A DNA stretch of 17,297 nucleotides from contig NZ_CAMPHN010000095.1 in the NCBI RefSeq assembly GCF_946885885.1, positions 1-17,297 of the forward strand, read 5' to 3'. The position numbers and the translations under genes were made by a program. This DNA comes from an uncultured Pseudomonas sp. GTDB taxonomy: Bacteria; Pseudomonadota; Gammaproteobacteria; Pseudomonadales; Pseudomonadaceae. The notes under the pieces are model-generated. The model saw only the letters and a program-made list of their open reading frames with translations. It was not told the origin of the DNA and did no database searches. Below are positions 1,116 to 4,870 of the stretch, in pieces. The number at the start of each line of letters is the position of its first letter. Position 1 is the stretch's first letter.

Positions 1116-1130
1116 TCGTGCAAATTGCAT
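1116..1130 (+). promoter_or_regulatory. Upstream activator site L1, TCRTGCA-N3-TGCAW
   Basis: The sequence reads TCGTGCAAATTGCAT: two TGCA half-sites separated by 3 nt. It starts 32 bp before an equivalent site at 1148 and is centred 103 bp upstream of the -24 GG of the sigma-54 promoter, a normal enhancer position for an NtrC-type activator. The same pair with the same offset occurs right of algB. AlgB as the binder is inference. Confidence 0.6.
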
Positions 1131-1147
1131 TACCGGCGATTCGAGGG

Positions 1148-1162
1148 TCATGCATTATGCAT
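1148..1162 (+). promoter_or_regulatory. Upstream activator site L2, TCRTGCA-N3-TGCAW
   Basis: The sequence reads TCATGCATTATGCAT, the second copy of the motif in the left control region. It is centred 71 bp upstream of the -24 GG. The 32-bp offset from L1 is close to three helical turns, so both sites face the same side of the DNA. Confidence 0.6.
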
Positions 1163-1185
1163 TCCGCACGACCCGATTAATTTAT

Positions 1186-1198
1186 TAACCACTTGATT
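1186..1198 (-). promoter_or_regulatory. Probable IHF binding site
   Basis: On the minus strand the sequence is AATCAAGTGGTTA, a full match to the IHF consensus WATCAANNNNTTR. It lies between the two upstream activator sites and the -24/-12 promoter, where IHF bends DNA so that an enhancer-bound activator can touch sigma-54 polymerase. The surrounding bases are AT-rich. Confidence 0.55.
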
Positions 1199-1225
1199 TA
1201 TAAAGATTTTTATATAAAAAAGAAC

Positions 1226-1241
1226 TGGCACGCGGACTGCT
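1226..1241 (+). promoter_or_regulatory. Sigma-54 (-24/-12) promoter
   Basis: TGGCAC-N5-CTGCT, with the invariant GG (1227-1228) and GC (1239-1240) exactly 10 bp apart; the consensus is TGGCAC-N5-TTGCW. Transcription should start near 1251, about 35 nt before the ATG at 1286. It needs an enhancer-binding activator, for which sites L1 and L2 are candidates. Confidence 0.75.
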
Positions 1242-1285
1242 TCCCAGGAACATCCATTCTTGATTCTGCAACCAGGGACGCTGCG

Positions 1286-1525
1286 ATGAAGACCCTTCCC
1301 AACCTATTGACCCTCACCTTGGCCGCCTCGATCGGTGCATTCGCCTCCACTTCACTGACCGCGCTGGCCCTGACGCTGAACCACAAGCCGGCCGAACGAC
1401 AACCGATAAACCAGCAACCGCACCCAGCCTTGGTGGTGGATATCACCGGCAATTGGCTCAGGGTCAGCCAGGAAACCCGGCAAGGCCTGTACCTGTCGCT
1501 GCCCGCGCAACGCTGGATATTCTAG
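1286..1525 (+). CDS. Small secreted or periplasmic protein, unknown function
   Basis: A 79-residue protein not assigned to any family. The N-terminus is a clear signal peptide: MKTLPN, then a hydrophobic stretch (about residues 7-28) with possible signal peptidase sites after Ala20 (AFA) or Ala28 (ALA). The mature part would be about 50-59 residues, mostly polar, with prolines near 36-46 (PAERQPINQQPHPA) and an end rich in hydrophobic residues (ITGNWLRVSQ, LYLSLPAQRWIF). There is no cysteine. The ATG at 1286 is preceded by CAGGGA; an in-frame start further upstream (1193) lies before the sigma-54 promoter and would destroy the signal peptide. It is transcribed toward kinB and ends 44 bp from the kinB stop. 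A perfect 12-bp palindrome (1528-1539) directly follows the stop but has no loop or U-tract. Expression is probably sigma-54 dependent and possibly under AlgB. Confidence 0.65.
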   Translation: MKTLPNLLTLTLAASIGAFASTSLTALALTLNHKPAERQPINQQPHPALVVDITGNWLRVSQETRQGLYLSLPAQRWIF

Positions 1526-1568
1526 ACACGCAATTGCGTACACGCCCGCGACGTTGGTCGGGAACCGA

Positions 1569-3353: not shown

Positions 3354-4696
3354 AAGCGGTACTGTTTGCGTTTCCGGTACAGGGTCGAGGCATCGATGCC
3401 CAGGGTCTTCGCCGCCTGATCGAGGGTGTCGGTGGTCGCCAGCACGGCGCCGATATGGGCTTTTTCCAGGGCTTCCAGGCTGAGATCGGCGCCGATCCGC
3501 GGGGCGCTGCTGGCCGGCTGTCCACCCAGCCCGAGGTGGCTGATTTCGATCTGCTCCTGGGGGCAGATGATGCTGGCGCGCTCGACCACATTGCGCAGCT
3601 CGCGAATATTGCCGGGCCACTGGTAGTCGAGCAGCGCGTTGCGCGCCTCCTCGCTGAAACCGCGGGCCGGGCGCACGTAGTCTTTGACGAAGCGGGCGAG
3701 AAAGCCTTCCGCCAACACCGCGATGTCGTCCGGGCGTTCGCGCAGCGGCGGCAACACCAGGGTGATGACGTTCAGGCGGTAGAGCAGGTCTTCGCGGAAG
3801 CGGCCATCGCGCACCATCTCGTCCAGGTCGAGGTTGGTCGCGGCGAGGATGCGCACATCGGCGCGGCGGGTGATGGGATCGCCGACCCGCTCGTACTCCT
3901 TGTCCTGAATGAAGCGCAGCAGCTTGGGTTGCAGCGTCAAGGGGAAGTCGCCGATCTCGTCGAGGAACAGGGTGCCGCCGTCCGCCTGGTTGACCCGCCC
4001 CAGTGTGTTCTCGCTGGCGCCGGTAAAGGCGCCGCGGCTGTGGCCGAACAGCTCGCTCTCCATCAACTCGGCCGTCAGCGAGGGACAGTTGATGGTTACG
4101 CAGGACTTGCGCGCCCGTGGGCTCCAGCCGTGAATGGCGCGCGCCAACTCGCCCTTGCCGGTGCCGGACTCGCCGAGGATAAGGATATTGGCATCGGTCA
4201 CCGCGACCTGCCGTGCCGTTTCCAGCACGGCCATCATCGCCGGGCTGTGGGAGTCGAGCACATTTCTGGCATTGCGCACTTCGCCTTCGAGGGCTTCCAG
4301 ACGCGCGGCCATATGGCGCACTTCCAACTGTTTCGCGGCGGCCAGGCGCAACTGGTCGGGGCTGCAAGGTTTGACCAGGTAATCGGCGGCGCCGATCTGG
4401 ATGGCATCCACCGCGGTGTCCACGGCCGAATGCGCGGTCACTATCACCACACGCATCCAGGGCGCCTGGGTACGCATCTGCGCCAATACATCGAGCCCAT
4501 TGTCCTCGCCCAGGCGCAGGTCGAGAAAACACAGGTCGAACACCTGACGCTGTAACAACGCCTCGGCCTGACTGGCATTGGTGGCTGTACTGACTTGGTA
4601 GCCCTCGTCCTCGAGGCAATAGCGAAAGGTCCGCAGAATCGCGCCTTCATCATCGACCAACAGAATGCGAGCGCTCTTCATGGCTCGTGCTTCCAT
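3350..4696 (-). CDS. algB: NtrC-family sigma-54-interacting response regulator AlgB
   Basis: A 448-residue cytoplasmic regulator, one residue shorter than P. aeruginosa AlgB and very similar throughout. The receiver (about 8-125) has acidic residues 15-16, phospho-acceptor Asp59 (CFLDLRLGEDNG), Thr87 and Lys109. The AAA+ domain (about 150-380) has Walker A GESGTGKG (175-182), the sigma-54 contact loop GAFTGA (222-227) and Walker B GTLFLDEIGD (241-250). A Fis-type helix-turn-helix closes the protein (LDQAAKTLGIDASTLYRKRKQY). AlgB activates alginate genes and links to quorum sensing in P. aeruginosa, where KinB is its phosphatase and the BphP photoreceptor a reported kinase. The start at 4696 gives the same distance to the receiver as in P. 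aeruginosa and has GGAG 8 nt upstream; Met at 4681 (GGAAG before it) is an alternative. The intact GAFTGA means it should be able to drive the two flanking sigma-54 promoters. Confidence 0.96.
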   Translation of the reverse strand: MEARAMKSARILLVDDEGAILRTFRYCLEDEGYQVSTATNASQAEALLQRQVFDLCFLDLRLGEDNGLDVLAQMRTQAPWMRVVIVTAHSAVDTAVDAIQIGAADYLVKPCSPDQLRLAAAKQLEVRHMAARLEALEGEVRNARNVLDSHSPAMMAVLETARQVAVTDANILILGESGTGKGELARAIHGWSPRARKSCVTINCPSLTAELMESELFGHSRGAFTGASENTLGRVNQADGGTLFLDEIGDFPLTLQPKLLRFIQDKEYERVGDPITRRADVRILAATNLDLDEMVRDGRFREDLLYRLNVITLVLPPLRERPDDIAVLAEGFLARFVKDYVRPARGFSEEARNALLDYQWPGNIRELRNVVERASIICPQEQIEISHLGLGGQPASSAPRIGADLSLEALEKAHIGAVLATTDTLDQAAKTLGIDASTLYRKRKQYRL

Positions 4697-4702
4697 ATCC
4701 AG

Positions 4703-4728
4703 AACTCCATTGTTGGGTGCATGGAGTT
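4703..4728 (-). promoter_or_regulatory. Leader hairpin covering the algB ribosome binding site
   Basis: A perfect 8-bp inverted repeat, AACTCCAT (4703-4710) and ATGGAGTT (4721-4728), with a 10-nt loop. In the algB transcript the 3' arm contains the GGAG that serves the start at 4696, so the fold would hide the ribosome binding site. It could equally be a protein operator in DNA; the loop includes one TGCA half-site (4718-4721). Confidence 0.45.
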
Positions 4729-4741
4729 AGTCCGCTTTTGC

Positions 4742-4756
4742 TCGTGCAAGTTGCAA
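4742..4756 (+). promoter_or_regulatory. Upstream activator site R1, TCRTGCA-N3-TGCAW
   Basis: The sequence reads TCGTGCAAGTTGCAA, the counterpart of site L1 and differing from it at two of 15 bases. It is centred 106 bp upstream of the right-hand -24 GG and lies 46 bp upstream of the algB start, so a bound regulator could also affect algB. Confidence 0.6.
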
Positions 4757-4773
4757 GGATTATTCGCTCGGGA

Positions 4774-4788
4774 TCATGCAGTCTGCAT
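4774..4788 (+). promoter_or_regulatory. Upstream activator site R2, TCRTGCA-N3-TGCAW
   Basis: The sequence reads TCATGCAGTCTGCAT, and the palindrome extends to 8-bp arms (ATCATGCA at 4773-4780, TGCATGAT at 4784-4791). It begins 32 bp after R1, the same offset as L1 to L2, and is centred 74 bp upstream of the -24 GG. Confidence 0.62.
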
Positions 4789-4854
4789 GATGGCGGGTTT
4801 TTAATTTAGCTCCTAACTTACTGTTTTTATTGATTTAAATTATCAGAAAAGATC

Positions 4855-4870
4855 TGGCACAAGAGCTGCA
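4855..4870 (+). promoter_or_regulatory. Sigma-54 (-24/-12) promoter
   Basis: TGGCAC-N5-CTGCA, with GG (4856-4857) and GC (4868-4869) 10 bp apart, an almost perfect consensus. The start should fall near 4880, giving a leader of about 69 nt before the ATG at 4949. The DNA between site R2 and this promoter is AT-rich and has the WATCAA half of an IHF site on the minus strand (4830-4835), but the TTR half is missing. Confidence 0.8.

What the first reader, a model, noticed from the sequence alone, without database searches (positions are those of the whole stretch)
1116..4870. Matched enhancer-promoter modules on both sides of algB-kinB: a candidate AlgB/sigma-54 regulon box
Seen directly: the 15-bp motif TCRTGCA-N3-TGCAW occurs four times, as two pairs. 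Starts are 1116 and 1148 on the left, 4742 and 4774 on the right; the offset within each pair is 32 bp. Each pair sits 71-106 bp upstream of the GG of a near-consensus -24/-12 promoter (1226-1241, 4855-4870), with AT-rich DNA between. Known: AlgB is an NtrC-family activator, and the copy here keeps GAFTGA, Walker A/B and Asp59. Inference: AlgB binds these sites cooperatively and drives both genes through RpoN. AlgB is mostly discussed for the AlgU-dependent algD promoter, so a defined AlgB site with sigma-54 targets beside its own operon would be informative.
Basis: partly seen in the sequence, partly recalled or inferred. Interest (0 to 1): 0.85.

Follow-up and report, generated by a model that had tools for sequence, protein, structure and literature searches.

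The report
AlgB switches driving AlgW-activator-like genes
Beside a stress-sensing gene pair in a Pseudomonas relative lie two copies of a conserved DNA switch, one of which seems to turn on a tiny protein whose tail resembles the known trigger of an envelope-stress protease, suggesting how this sensor might raise the alarm.

Summary
Two copies of one module flank algB-kinB: two 17-bp palindromes (TCRTGCA-N3-TGCAYGA) 32 bp apart, an IHF-like site, and a -24/-12 promoter. It is present at 60 of 61 pseudomonad algB loci counting the window, and at none of the same loci reversed or shuffled. In 99 Pseudomonas genomes the two without detectable AlgB are exactly the two without the module pattern.

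The left gene encodes a 79-aa protein ending AQRWIF. Of 98 small genes behind distinct modules, 74 end in a WVF-like tail (58 RWVF), against 2 of 423 other small ORFs, both of which also follow a module. RWVF is the tail with which MucE activates the AlgW protease (PMC8545111). I propose that AlgB and sigma-54 make MucE-like AlgW activators, leading to MucA cleavage and AlgU release: a ligand for the reported KinB-AlgB-AlgW pathway. Regulator-promoter pairing: high confidence; AlgW step: inferred, moderate. P. aeruginosa itself was not identified among the genomes held; a close relative differs.

The parts
1116..1132 (+). Left module, promoter-distal AlgB box (TCGTGCAAATTGCATTA)
1148..1164 (+). 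Left module, promoter-proximal AlgB box (TCATGCATTATGCATTC), 32 bp from the distal box
1186..1198 (+). IHF-like site TAACCACTTGATT (fits YAANNNNTTGATW), 40 bp before the -24 element
   Evidence: sequence; class-wide conservation
1226..1241 (+). -24/-12 (sigma-54) promoter TGGCACGCGGACTGCT
1286..1525 (+). 79-aa small protein with a moderately hydrophobic N-terminal segment (mean hydropathy 1.52, just under my 1.6 cut-off), C-terminus SLPAQRWIF; MucE-like putative AlgW activator; no Pfam or NCBIfam hit
1569..3362 (-). kinB (KinB_sensor, HAMP, PAS, HisKA, HATPase)
3350..4696 (-). algB (response regulator with sigma-54 activator domain; Asp59, GAFTGA, HTH_8)
4727..4753 (-). Putative AlgU-type promoter of algB (CAACTT-N16-ACTAA); its -35 lies inside the distal AlgB box
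   Evidence: same CAACTT-N16 element in 48 of 61 loci
4742..4758 (+). Right module, promoter-distal AlgB box (TCGTGCAAGTTGCAAGG)
4774..4790 (+). Right module, promoter-proximal AlgB box (TCATGCAGTCTGCATGA, perfect palindrome)
4814..4826 (+). IHF-like site (2 mismatches), 41 bp before the -24 element
   Evidence: sequence
4855..4870 (+). -24/-12 (sigma-54) promoter TGGCACAAGAGCTGCA
4949..5386 (+). DUF2383 / PA2169-family four-helix-bundle protein (145 aa)

Best explanation
The two modules are AlgB-dependent sigma-54 promoters. Two AlgB dimers sit on palindromes three helical turns apart, IHF bends the AT-rich spacer, and AlgB remodels RpoN polymerase at the -24/-12 site. One module drives a DUF2383 stress-type protein. 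The other drives a small, probably membrane-anchored or secreted protein with an RWVF-type C-terminus facing the periplasm. That tail binds the PDZ domain of AlgW as MucE does, so AlgW cleaves MucA and AlgU is released; AlgU then raises algB, closing a loop. A two-component system would thus manufacture the ligand that fires the AlgU envelope response. Shown here by comparative sequence: module, spacing, link to AlgB, tail motif and AlgW pocket. Inferred: AlgB binding, RpoN use, periplasmic placement, AlgW activation.
For: Module anatomy: 104 distinct modules, of which 90 fit 31-32 bp box spacing and 77-82 bp to the promoter. An IHF-like site with <=1 mismatch is present in 85 of 90, 82 of them at -40/-41, versus about 15 of 90 in base shuffles. 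In the algB loci alone, which were not fetched by the pattern, a free-spacing scan gives 61 of 66 modules at 31-32 bp and 61 of 66 at 78-82 bp. Distribution: 16 of 16 genomes of my loci, 0 reversed hits; 97 of 99 Pseudomonas genomes versus 2 reversed-pattern hits in all 99; AlgB in the same 97; Fisher p 2e-4. Order level: 10 of 12 hits in AlgB+ genomes are double boxes, against 1 of 24 in AlgB- genomes (on 36 of the 38 rows). Tails: 74 of 98 small genes after modules versus 2 of 423 controls, and those 2 lie 730-770 bp behind a module. Converse test: all 5 real RWVF ORFs in four AlgB+ genomes have a module, and the two AlgB-less genomes have no RWVF-stop with a CGN Arg codon yet keep AlgW-like and MucA-like genes. 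AlgW: W281, L282, E285, M342 and R374 are identical in 8 of 8 pseudomonad AlgW sequences examined. E285 contacts Arg at -3 of the MucE tail SVRDELRWVF (PMC8545111, section 8 read, passages). Topology: 42 of 53 distinct small proteins have a clear N-terminal hydrophobic segment, and 47 of 53 are more positive on its N side. A 2026 review says AlgB activates AlgW and names no peptide ligand in the passages seen (PMC13001231).
Against: No binding, expression or protease experiment. A different link is already in print: KinB and RpoN are said to regulate AlgW expression (PMC13001231, passages), and algW promoter activity was lost in an rpoN mutant of PAO579 (PMC3684759, passages), so the AlgB-to-AlgW step may need no peptide. 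MucE itself is AlgU-dependent and did not respond to RpoN overexpression (PMC3819740, passages). The window's own small protein falls just below my hydropathy cut-off (1.52 against 1.6); in all 11 of 53 do. K287 of P. aeruginosa AlgW is Gln in all 8 sequences examined; those 8 include the two AlgB-less genomes, so pocket conservation does not depend on AlgB. The DegS-family model used to find AlgW was below its curated cut-off in 9 of 9 genomes. The RWVF-stop pattern alone is not enriched: 12 hits against 10 of the reversed pattern; only reading the frames separates them. Eight algB loci with a module have no WVF gene near a module within the locus. In G267, of the P. aeruginosa complex, the algB-side module precedes DUF1328 and Ivy (lysozyme inhibitor) genes, and the nearest candidate ends in WTF. 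One review states that unphosphorylated AlgB activates algD (PMC10418997, passages), which conflicts with a phospho-AlgB model. Only two AlgB-less Pseudomonas genomes were available, of unstated completeness; both also lack DUF2383. One AlgB-less genome of the order, G190, has a passable double box with an IHF-like site.
Confidence: 0.63

Rival explanations
1. AlgB and sigma-54 do drive the modules, but the RWVF tails serve something else (for example a sorting or turnover signal) and do not activate AlgW; the regulon is a set of envelope and general stress genes, and KinB/RpoN reach AlgW by raising algW expression, as already proposed.
For: The other targets are stress-type or uncharacterised families: BON, DUF2383, DUF3509, DUF1328, Ivy and an unassigned ~300-aa membrane protein. 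Eight algB loci have modules without a nearby WVF gene. RpoN control of algW expression is reported (PMC3684759 and PMC13001231, passages).
Against: 58 of 74 WVF-type tails are exactly RWVF, the tail of the peptide that activates AlgW in vitro. AlgW pocket residues are conserved. The WVF-type proteins fall into 11 BLAST clusters yet share the tail. In the window family the C-terminal part is the conserved part.
Confidence: 0.25
2. Another NtrC-type activator, not AlgB, binds the palindromes; proximity to algB is inherited synteny.
For: Most pseudomonad genomes have many sigma-54 activators (general knowledge). Binding was not tested. One AlgB-less genome of the order (G190) has a passable module.
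Against: Modules and AlgB are missing together in 2 of 99 Pseudomonas genomes. At order level double boxes are nearly confined to AlgB+ genomes. Two Lysobacter-type loci found by AlgB homology carry the box pair beside it. NtrC-like half-sites seen in AlgB- genomes have a different layout.
Confidence: 0.08
3. AlgB binds the boxes but mainly as a repressor or autoregulator of algB, and the divergent genes are driven otherwise.
For: The algB-side distal box overlaps the -35 of a putative AlgU-type algB promoter in the window, and the same CAACTT-N16 element occurs in 48 of 61 loci. AlgB is reported to repress some traits in P. aeruginosa (PMC6932827, passages).
Against: Modules on other contigs or far from algB have no algB promoter to repress. 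Near-fixed box-to-promoter distance and the IHF-like site fit activation.
Confidence: 0.04

Closest known systems
NtrC-family (sigma-54 enhancer-binding protein) promoters with tandem upstream sites and IHF
   Same: Paired dyad sites about three helical turns apart upstream of a -24/-12 promoter, IHF-like site between, regulator with GAFTGA
   Different: The dyad TCRTGCA-N3-TGCAYGA is not the NtrC site (recalled as TGCACYA-N3-TRGTGCA); box-to-promoter distance is nearly fixed in the pseudomonads scanned
MucE of P. aeruginosa (small envelope protein, tail SVRDELRWVF, activator of AlgW)
   Same: Small, N-terminal hydrophobic segment in most, RWVF tail in most members
   Different: mucE is reported AlgU-dependent and its BLAST orthologues only in P. 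aeruginosa (PMC3819740, passages). These genes carry AlgB-box/sigma-54 modules, are spread over the genus, and the window's tail is RWIF
KinB/RpoN regulon of P. aeruginosa (Damron 2012) and KinB control of AlgW-dependent MucA proteolysis (Damron 2009)
   Same: Same regulators, same protease output (titles and citations seen)
   Different: Neither paper was read (Damron 2012 is not held; Damron 2009 was not looked up). In what I could read no AlgB site and no AlgB-driven AlgW ligand is described; Damron 2012 is cited as proposing RpoN control of algW expression
AlgB action at the algD promoter
   Same: Same regulator
   Different: algD is described as AlgU-driven; the modules here have -24/-12 promoters. 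The algD sites were not compared

Membership tests
sigma-54 promoter | TGGCAC-N5-TTGCW with GG-N10-GC | tested here: met
   Both window promoters have GG-N10-GC and are one base off consensus; profile of 90 modules
sigma-54 promoter | Upstream activator sites and IHF bend site | tested here: met
   Box pair 31-32 bp apart; IHF-like site in 85 of 90 modules. Right-hand window site has 2 mismatches
sigma-54 promoter | RpoN-dependent transcription | not testable with these tools
   No expression data
AlgB regulon | Co-occurrence of module and AlgB | tested here: met
   97 of 97 AlgB+ and 0 of 2 AlgB- Pseudomonas genomes. Order level: of 7 AlgB+ genomes 5 have strict hits; G234 has a module with a -12 variant; G179, a 68% partial hit on a short contig, shows none. 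AlgB was not sought in the 5 of 25 G206-genus genomes without a hit
AlgB regulon | AlgB binds the site | not testable with these tools
   Needs gel shift, footprint or DAP-seq
NtrC-family activator (AlgB) | Receiver Asp, Walker motifs, GAFTGA, Fis-type HTH | tested here: met
   Domains; Asp59, Walker A and GAFTGA read in the translation
MucE-like AlgW activator | C-terminal W-V-F type tail | tested here: met
   Window protein ends RWIF; 74 of 98 small module genes WVF-like, 58 RWVF
MucE-like AlgW activator | Membrane or secreted protein with tail in periplasm | tested here: inconclusive
   Crude hydropathy and charge test: 42 of 53 and 47 of 53; the window protein itself scores 1.52 against a cut-off of 1.6; no signal-peptide predictor used
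MucE-like AlgW activator | Sequence homology to MucE | not tested
   Only the MucE decapeptide was available; the codon pattern of its end is absent from the 25 genomes. I claim likeness in function, not orthology
MucE-like AlgW activator | Activates AlgW protease | not testable with these tools
   AlgW-like genes present with conserved pocket; no assay

The most novel reading that the evidence does not exclude
KinB-AlgB is a two-component system that fires the AlgU envelope-stress response by making the alarm peptide itself: phospho-AlgB with sigma-54 transcribes fast-evolving small proteins that keep little but an N-terminal anchor and an RWVF tail, which activate AlgW to destroy MucA. This would join the sigma-54 and AlgU circuits across the genus and identify an effector between AlgB and AlgW. 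Lineages would swap anchors and tails (RWVF, RWIF, GWVF, perhaps WTF in the P. aeruginosa complex).
Probability: 0.55. Interest if true: 0.88.

Novelty: new variant of a known kind. Interest (0 to 1): 0.8.

Why it matters
KinB is reported to control alginate through AlgW-dependent MucA proteolysis, and AlgB is said to activate AlgW; in the passages I read the only stated link is RpoN/KinB control of AlgW expression, and no AlgB-made ligand is named (PMC13001231; PMC3684759). A defined AlgB box and a family of AlgB-linked RWVF proteins make a ligand model directly testable in harmless laboratory pseudomonads. It also gives a scan that predicts the AlgB regulon in sequenced pseudomonads and suggests roles for several 'hypothetical' gene families.

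Tried and rejected
The idea of an alternative 24-bp box spacing in some modules was dropped: on inspection the first TGCA there is the second half of a distal box with a weak first half. still lists 8 modules scored at 24 bp, and they are outside the 90. A WVF-type gene was sought in the Lysobacter-type algB loci and not found; the DegS-family search there gave a longer protein that looks DegP-like by eye. The MucE-tail pattern gave 0 hits in 25 genomes. The window's own genome is not held, so its regulon could not be scanned. Papers wanted but not held: Trouillon 2021, Damron 2012, Leech 2008 (what they contain is recalled, not seen); whether they list these sites or targets is unknown. AlgB is in the HT-SELEX atlas (PMC8041468, passages) but no supplement look-ups were allowed, so the AlgB motif may already be in a table I have not seen. 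No structure prediction was run. Rows dropped: 14 of 104 modules before the profile; 2 overlapping-register rows of 38 before the order-level count; loci L064-L079 (distant homologues) from module counts; L058, L059 and L061 (non-pseudomonads) from the 61-locus count.
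Full report
Observation. Six matches with up to one mismatch compare with 0.41 expected, and no shuffle of 200 reached six. The unit is better written as a 17-bp palindrome, TCRTGCA-N3-TGCAYGA; the copy at 4774 is perfect.

Surroundings. algB (3350-4696, minus) and kinB (1569-3362, minus) are clear: receiver, sigma-54 activator and HTH_8 domains, and a KinB sensor domain. 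Each flank holds one gene reading away from its module: a 79-aa protein with no family hit (1286-1525) and a DUF2383/PA2169-family protein (4949-5386).

Conservation. A scan with AlgB kept the best 79 loci of a capped list. 60 of these have AlgB at 77% identity or more and are named pseudomonads or taken as such. With the window, 60 of 61 loci carry a box pair and -24/-12 promoter; the exception, L016, is cut off about 1.6 kb upstream. The same scan of the reversed loci and of two 2-mer shuffles found none. Among 104 distinct modules in all loci held, box spacing was 31 (75) or 32 (15) bp, and box-to-promoter distance 79-81 in 92. Loci from L080 on were partly found by the pattern, so their spacing is partly by construction; in the algB loci alone, with spacing left free, it is 31-32 bp in 61 of 66 and 78-82 bp in 61 of 66. 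In the 90 well-formed modules the spacer is 30% GC and an IHF-like site with at most one mismatch sits at -40 or -41 in 82; base shuffles give about 15 of 90 with such a site anywhere. Related genomes are not independent, so these counts show conservation, not separate events.

Genome scans. The pattern TGCA-N26-28-TGCA-N66-80-TGGCAY-N5-YTGC hits 16 of 16 genomes of loci I chose, with no hit of the reversed pattern. It hits 97 of 99 Pseudomonas genomes, with two reversed-pattern hits in all. AlgB at E<=1e-100 is in 97 of the same 99. The two misses, G094 and G108, are the same in both (Fisher p 2e-4, taking genomes as independent). Both still have AlgW-like and MucA-like genes (the AlgW-type hits are under the curated cut-off of the DegS model in 9 of 9 genomes, the MucA hits over theirs in 9 of 9) but no DUF2383 gene. 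In 145 genomes of the order, AlgB is in 7 and the loose pattern in 26. A script on the 80 letters shown of 12 hits in AlgB+ genomes double boxes against 1 of 24 elsewhere, that one being G190; several of the rest look like NtrC sites (NtrC site recalled). Of the AlgB+ genomes without a strict hit, G234 has a module with G before the -12 TGC, and G179 is a partial AlgB on a short contig with no module seen. In the 25 genomes of G206's genus, 20 have a hit with the relaxed -12 and none a reversed hit; AlgB was not sought in the other five.

Independent lineage. Two Lysobacter-type loci with a 59%-identical AlgB have a box pair 31 bp apart just upstream of that gene, followed by a -24/-12-like site reading into it, but only 58-59 bp from the box, unlike the 78-82 bp of pseudomonads. 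A single box and a -24/-12-like site 90-91 bp apart occur about 1.2 kb further upstream in both, and in L058 these precede a BON-domain gene. This links the box to AlgB rather than to Pseudomonas synteny, though two loci are few.

Targets. Genes behind modules fall into repeated families: small proteins near algB, BON-domain proteins, DUF2383, DUF3509, DUF1328 and a ~300-aa membrane protein. The WVF-type small proteins are split into 11 BLAST clusters but share the last residues. Of 139 distinct modules, 98 are followed by an ORF of at most 130 aa, and 74 of these end in a WVF-like tail: 58 RWVF, others SWVF, GWVF, TWVF, HWVF, KWIF, RWIF, RLVF, RLIF, RYIF, RWFF; 24 do not, and 41 modules precede longer genes. 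Among other small ORFs in the algB loci the figure is 2 of 423, and both of these (L052, L054) stand 730-770 bp behind a module; in G011, the genome of L054, that module's first gene is DUF2383. Reading the other way, the RWVF-stop pattern (CGN codons only) has 12 hits in four AlgB+ genomes and 0 in the two AlgB-less ones, but its reversed control has 10 hits over the six genomes, so counts alone mean little. Of the 12, 4 are not stops, 3 (all in G033) end frames of under 20 residues, and the 5 real ORFs each have a module upstream. The window protein's relatives (13, all 'hypothetical' or unnamed) keep the C-terminal part nearly unchanged and vary in front; 12 of 13 end RWIF, one RWVF.

Mechanism. 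MucE of P. aeruginosa activates AlgW by its tail SVRDELRWVF; its last residues are read by W281, L282, V284 and, for Arg -3, E285 of AlgW (PMC8545111, section 8 read). AlgW sequences from eight pseudomonad genomes keep W281, L282, E285, M342 and R374 in 8 of 8; V284 is Ile in seven and K287 is Gln in all eight. These eight include the AlgB-less G094 and G108, so the pocket serves other ligands too. A simple hydropathy test puts a membrane segment near the N-terminus in 42 of 53 distinct small proteins, with the more positive side at the N-terminus in 47. The window protein scores 1.52, just under the 1.6 cut-off. So the tail is plausibly periplasmic, where AlgW is, but not proven so. The reading I favour is KinB-AlgB -> sigma-54 -> RWVF protein -> AlgW -> MucA loss -> AlgU. 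A CAACTT-N16-ACTAA element inside the algB-side distal box (48 of 61 loci share CAACTT-N16) looks like an AlgU-type algB promoter, giving a loop AlgU -> algB and, when AlgB is bound, possible self-limitation; this is inference.

P. aeruginosa. G267, whose AlgW is 99% identical to the PDB AlgW (next best 89%), stands for its complex. There the algB-side module precedes a DUF1328 gene and an Ivy-family lysozyme-inhibitor gene, and a second module elsewhere precedes a 91-aa protein with no family hit ending EQAWTF. The MucE tail was not found in it. So the model may apply there in altered form; this is the weakest point for readers interested in infection.

What is known. [quoted passage not shown] the latter is a non-peptide link and a live alternative. 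Ten searches of the held library showed no paper, in the listed titles and abstract starts or in the passages I read, that gives an AlgB/sigma-54 box or AlgB-driven WVF proteins. This covers open-licence papers only, and lists were capped; Damron 2012, Trouillon 2021 and Leech 2008 could not be read. The AlgB-RpoN connection as such is not new.

Verdict. The added finding, that AlgB modules sit on MucE-like RWVF genes, is strong as a sequence pattern and moderate as a mechanism.

Noticed in passing
window 4727-4753 (minus strand): AlgU-type promoter element CAACTT-N16-ACTAA for algB overlaps the distal AlgB box; CAACTT-N16 is the best element in 48 of 61 algB loci, suggesting self-limitation of algB.
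   Followed up: partly
L232 3968-4745 and L233 2615-2969 (G267, P. aeruginosa complex): AlgB modules ahead of DUF1328 and Ivy-family genes beside algB, and ahead of a 91-aa protein ending AWTF elsewhere.
   Followed up: partly
L058 3477-4034 and 4657-4763; L059 4687-4791: Lysobacter-type AlgB homologue with a box pair upstream of its own gene at a shorter distance to the promoter, and in L058 a box plus -24/-12-like site before a BON-domain gene.
   Followed up: partly
L061 around 6331-6443: A Spirochaetes MAG carries an AlgB-like regulator (50% identity) with a weak box pair and a -24/-12-like site downstream of it; possible transfer.
   Followed up: no
L222 (G011); L052 and L054: RWVF small genes 730-770 bp behind a module, in G011 after a module-driven DUF2383 gene.
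   Followed up: partly
window 417-833 (minus): Stand-alone receiver-domain protein of 138 aa with no output domain found.
   Followed up: no
(AlgB-less genomes of the order): The loose pattern also picks up NtrC-like paired sites before -24/-12-like sites at similar spacing; G190 is the one AlgB-less genome with a passable AlgB-type module.
   Followed up: no
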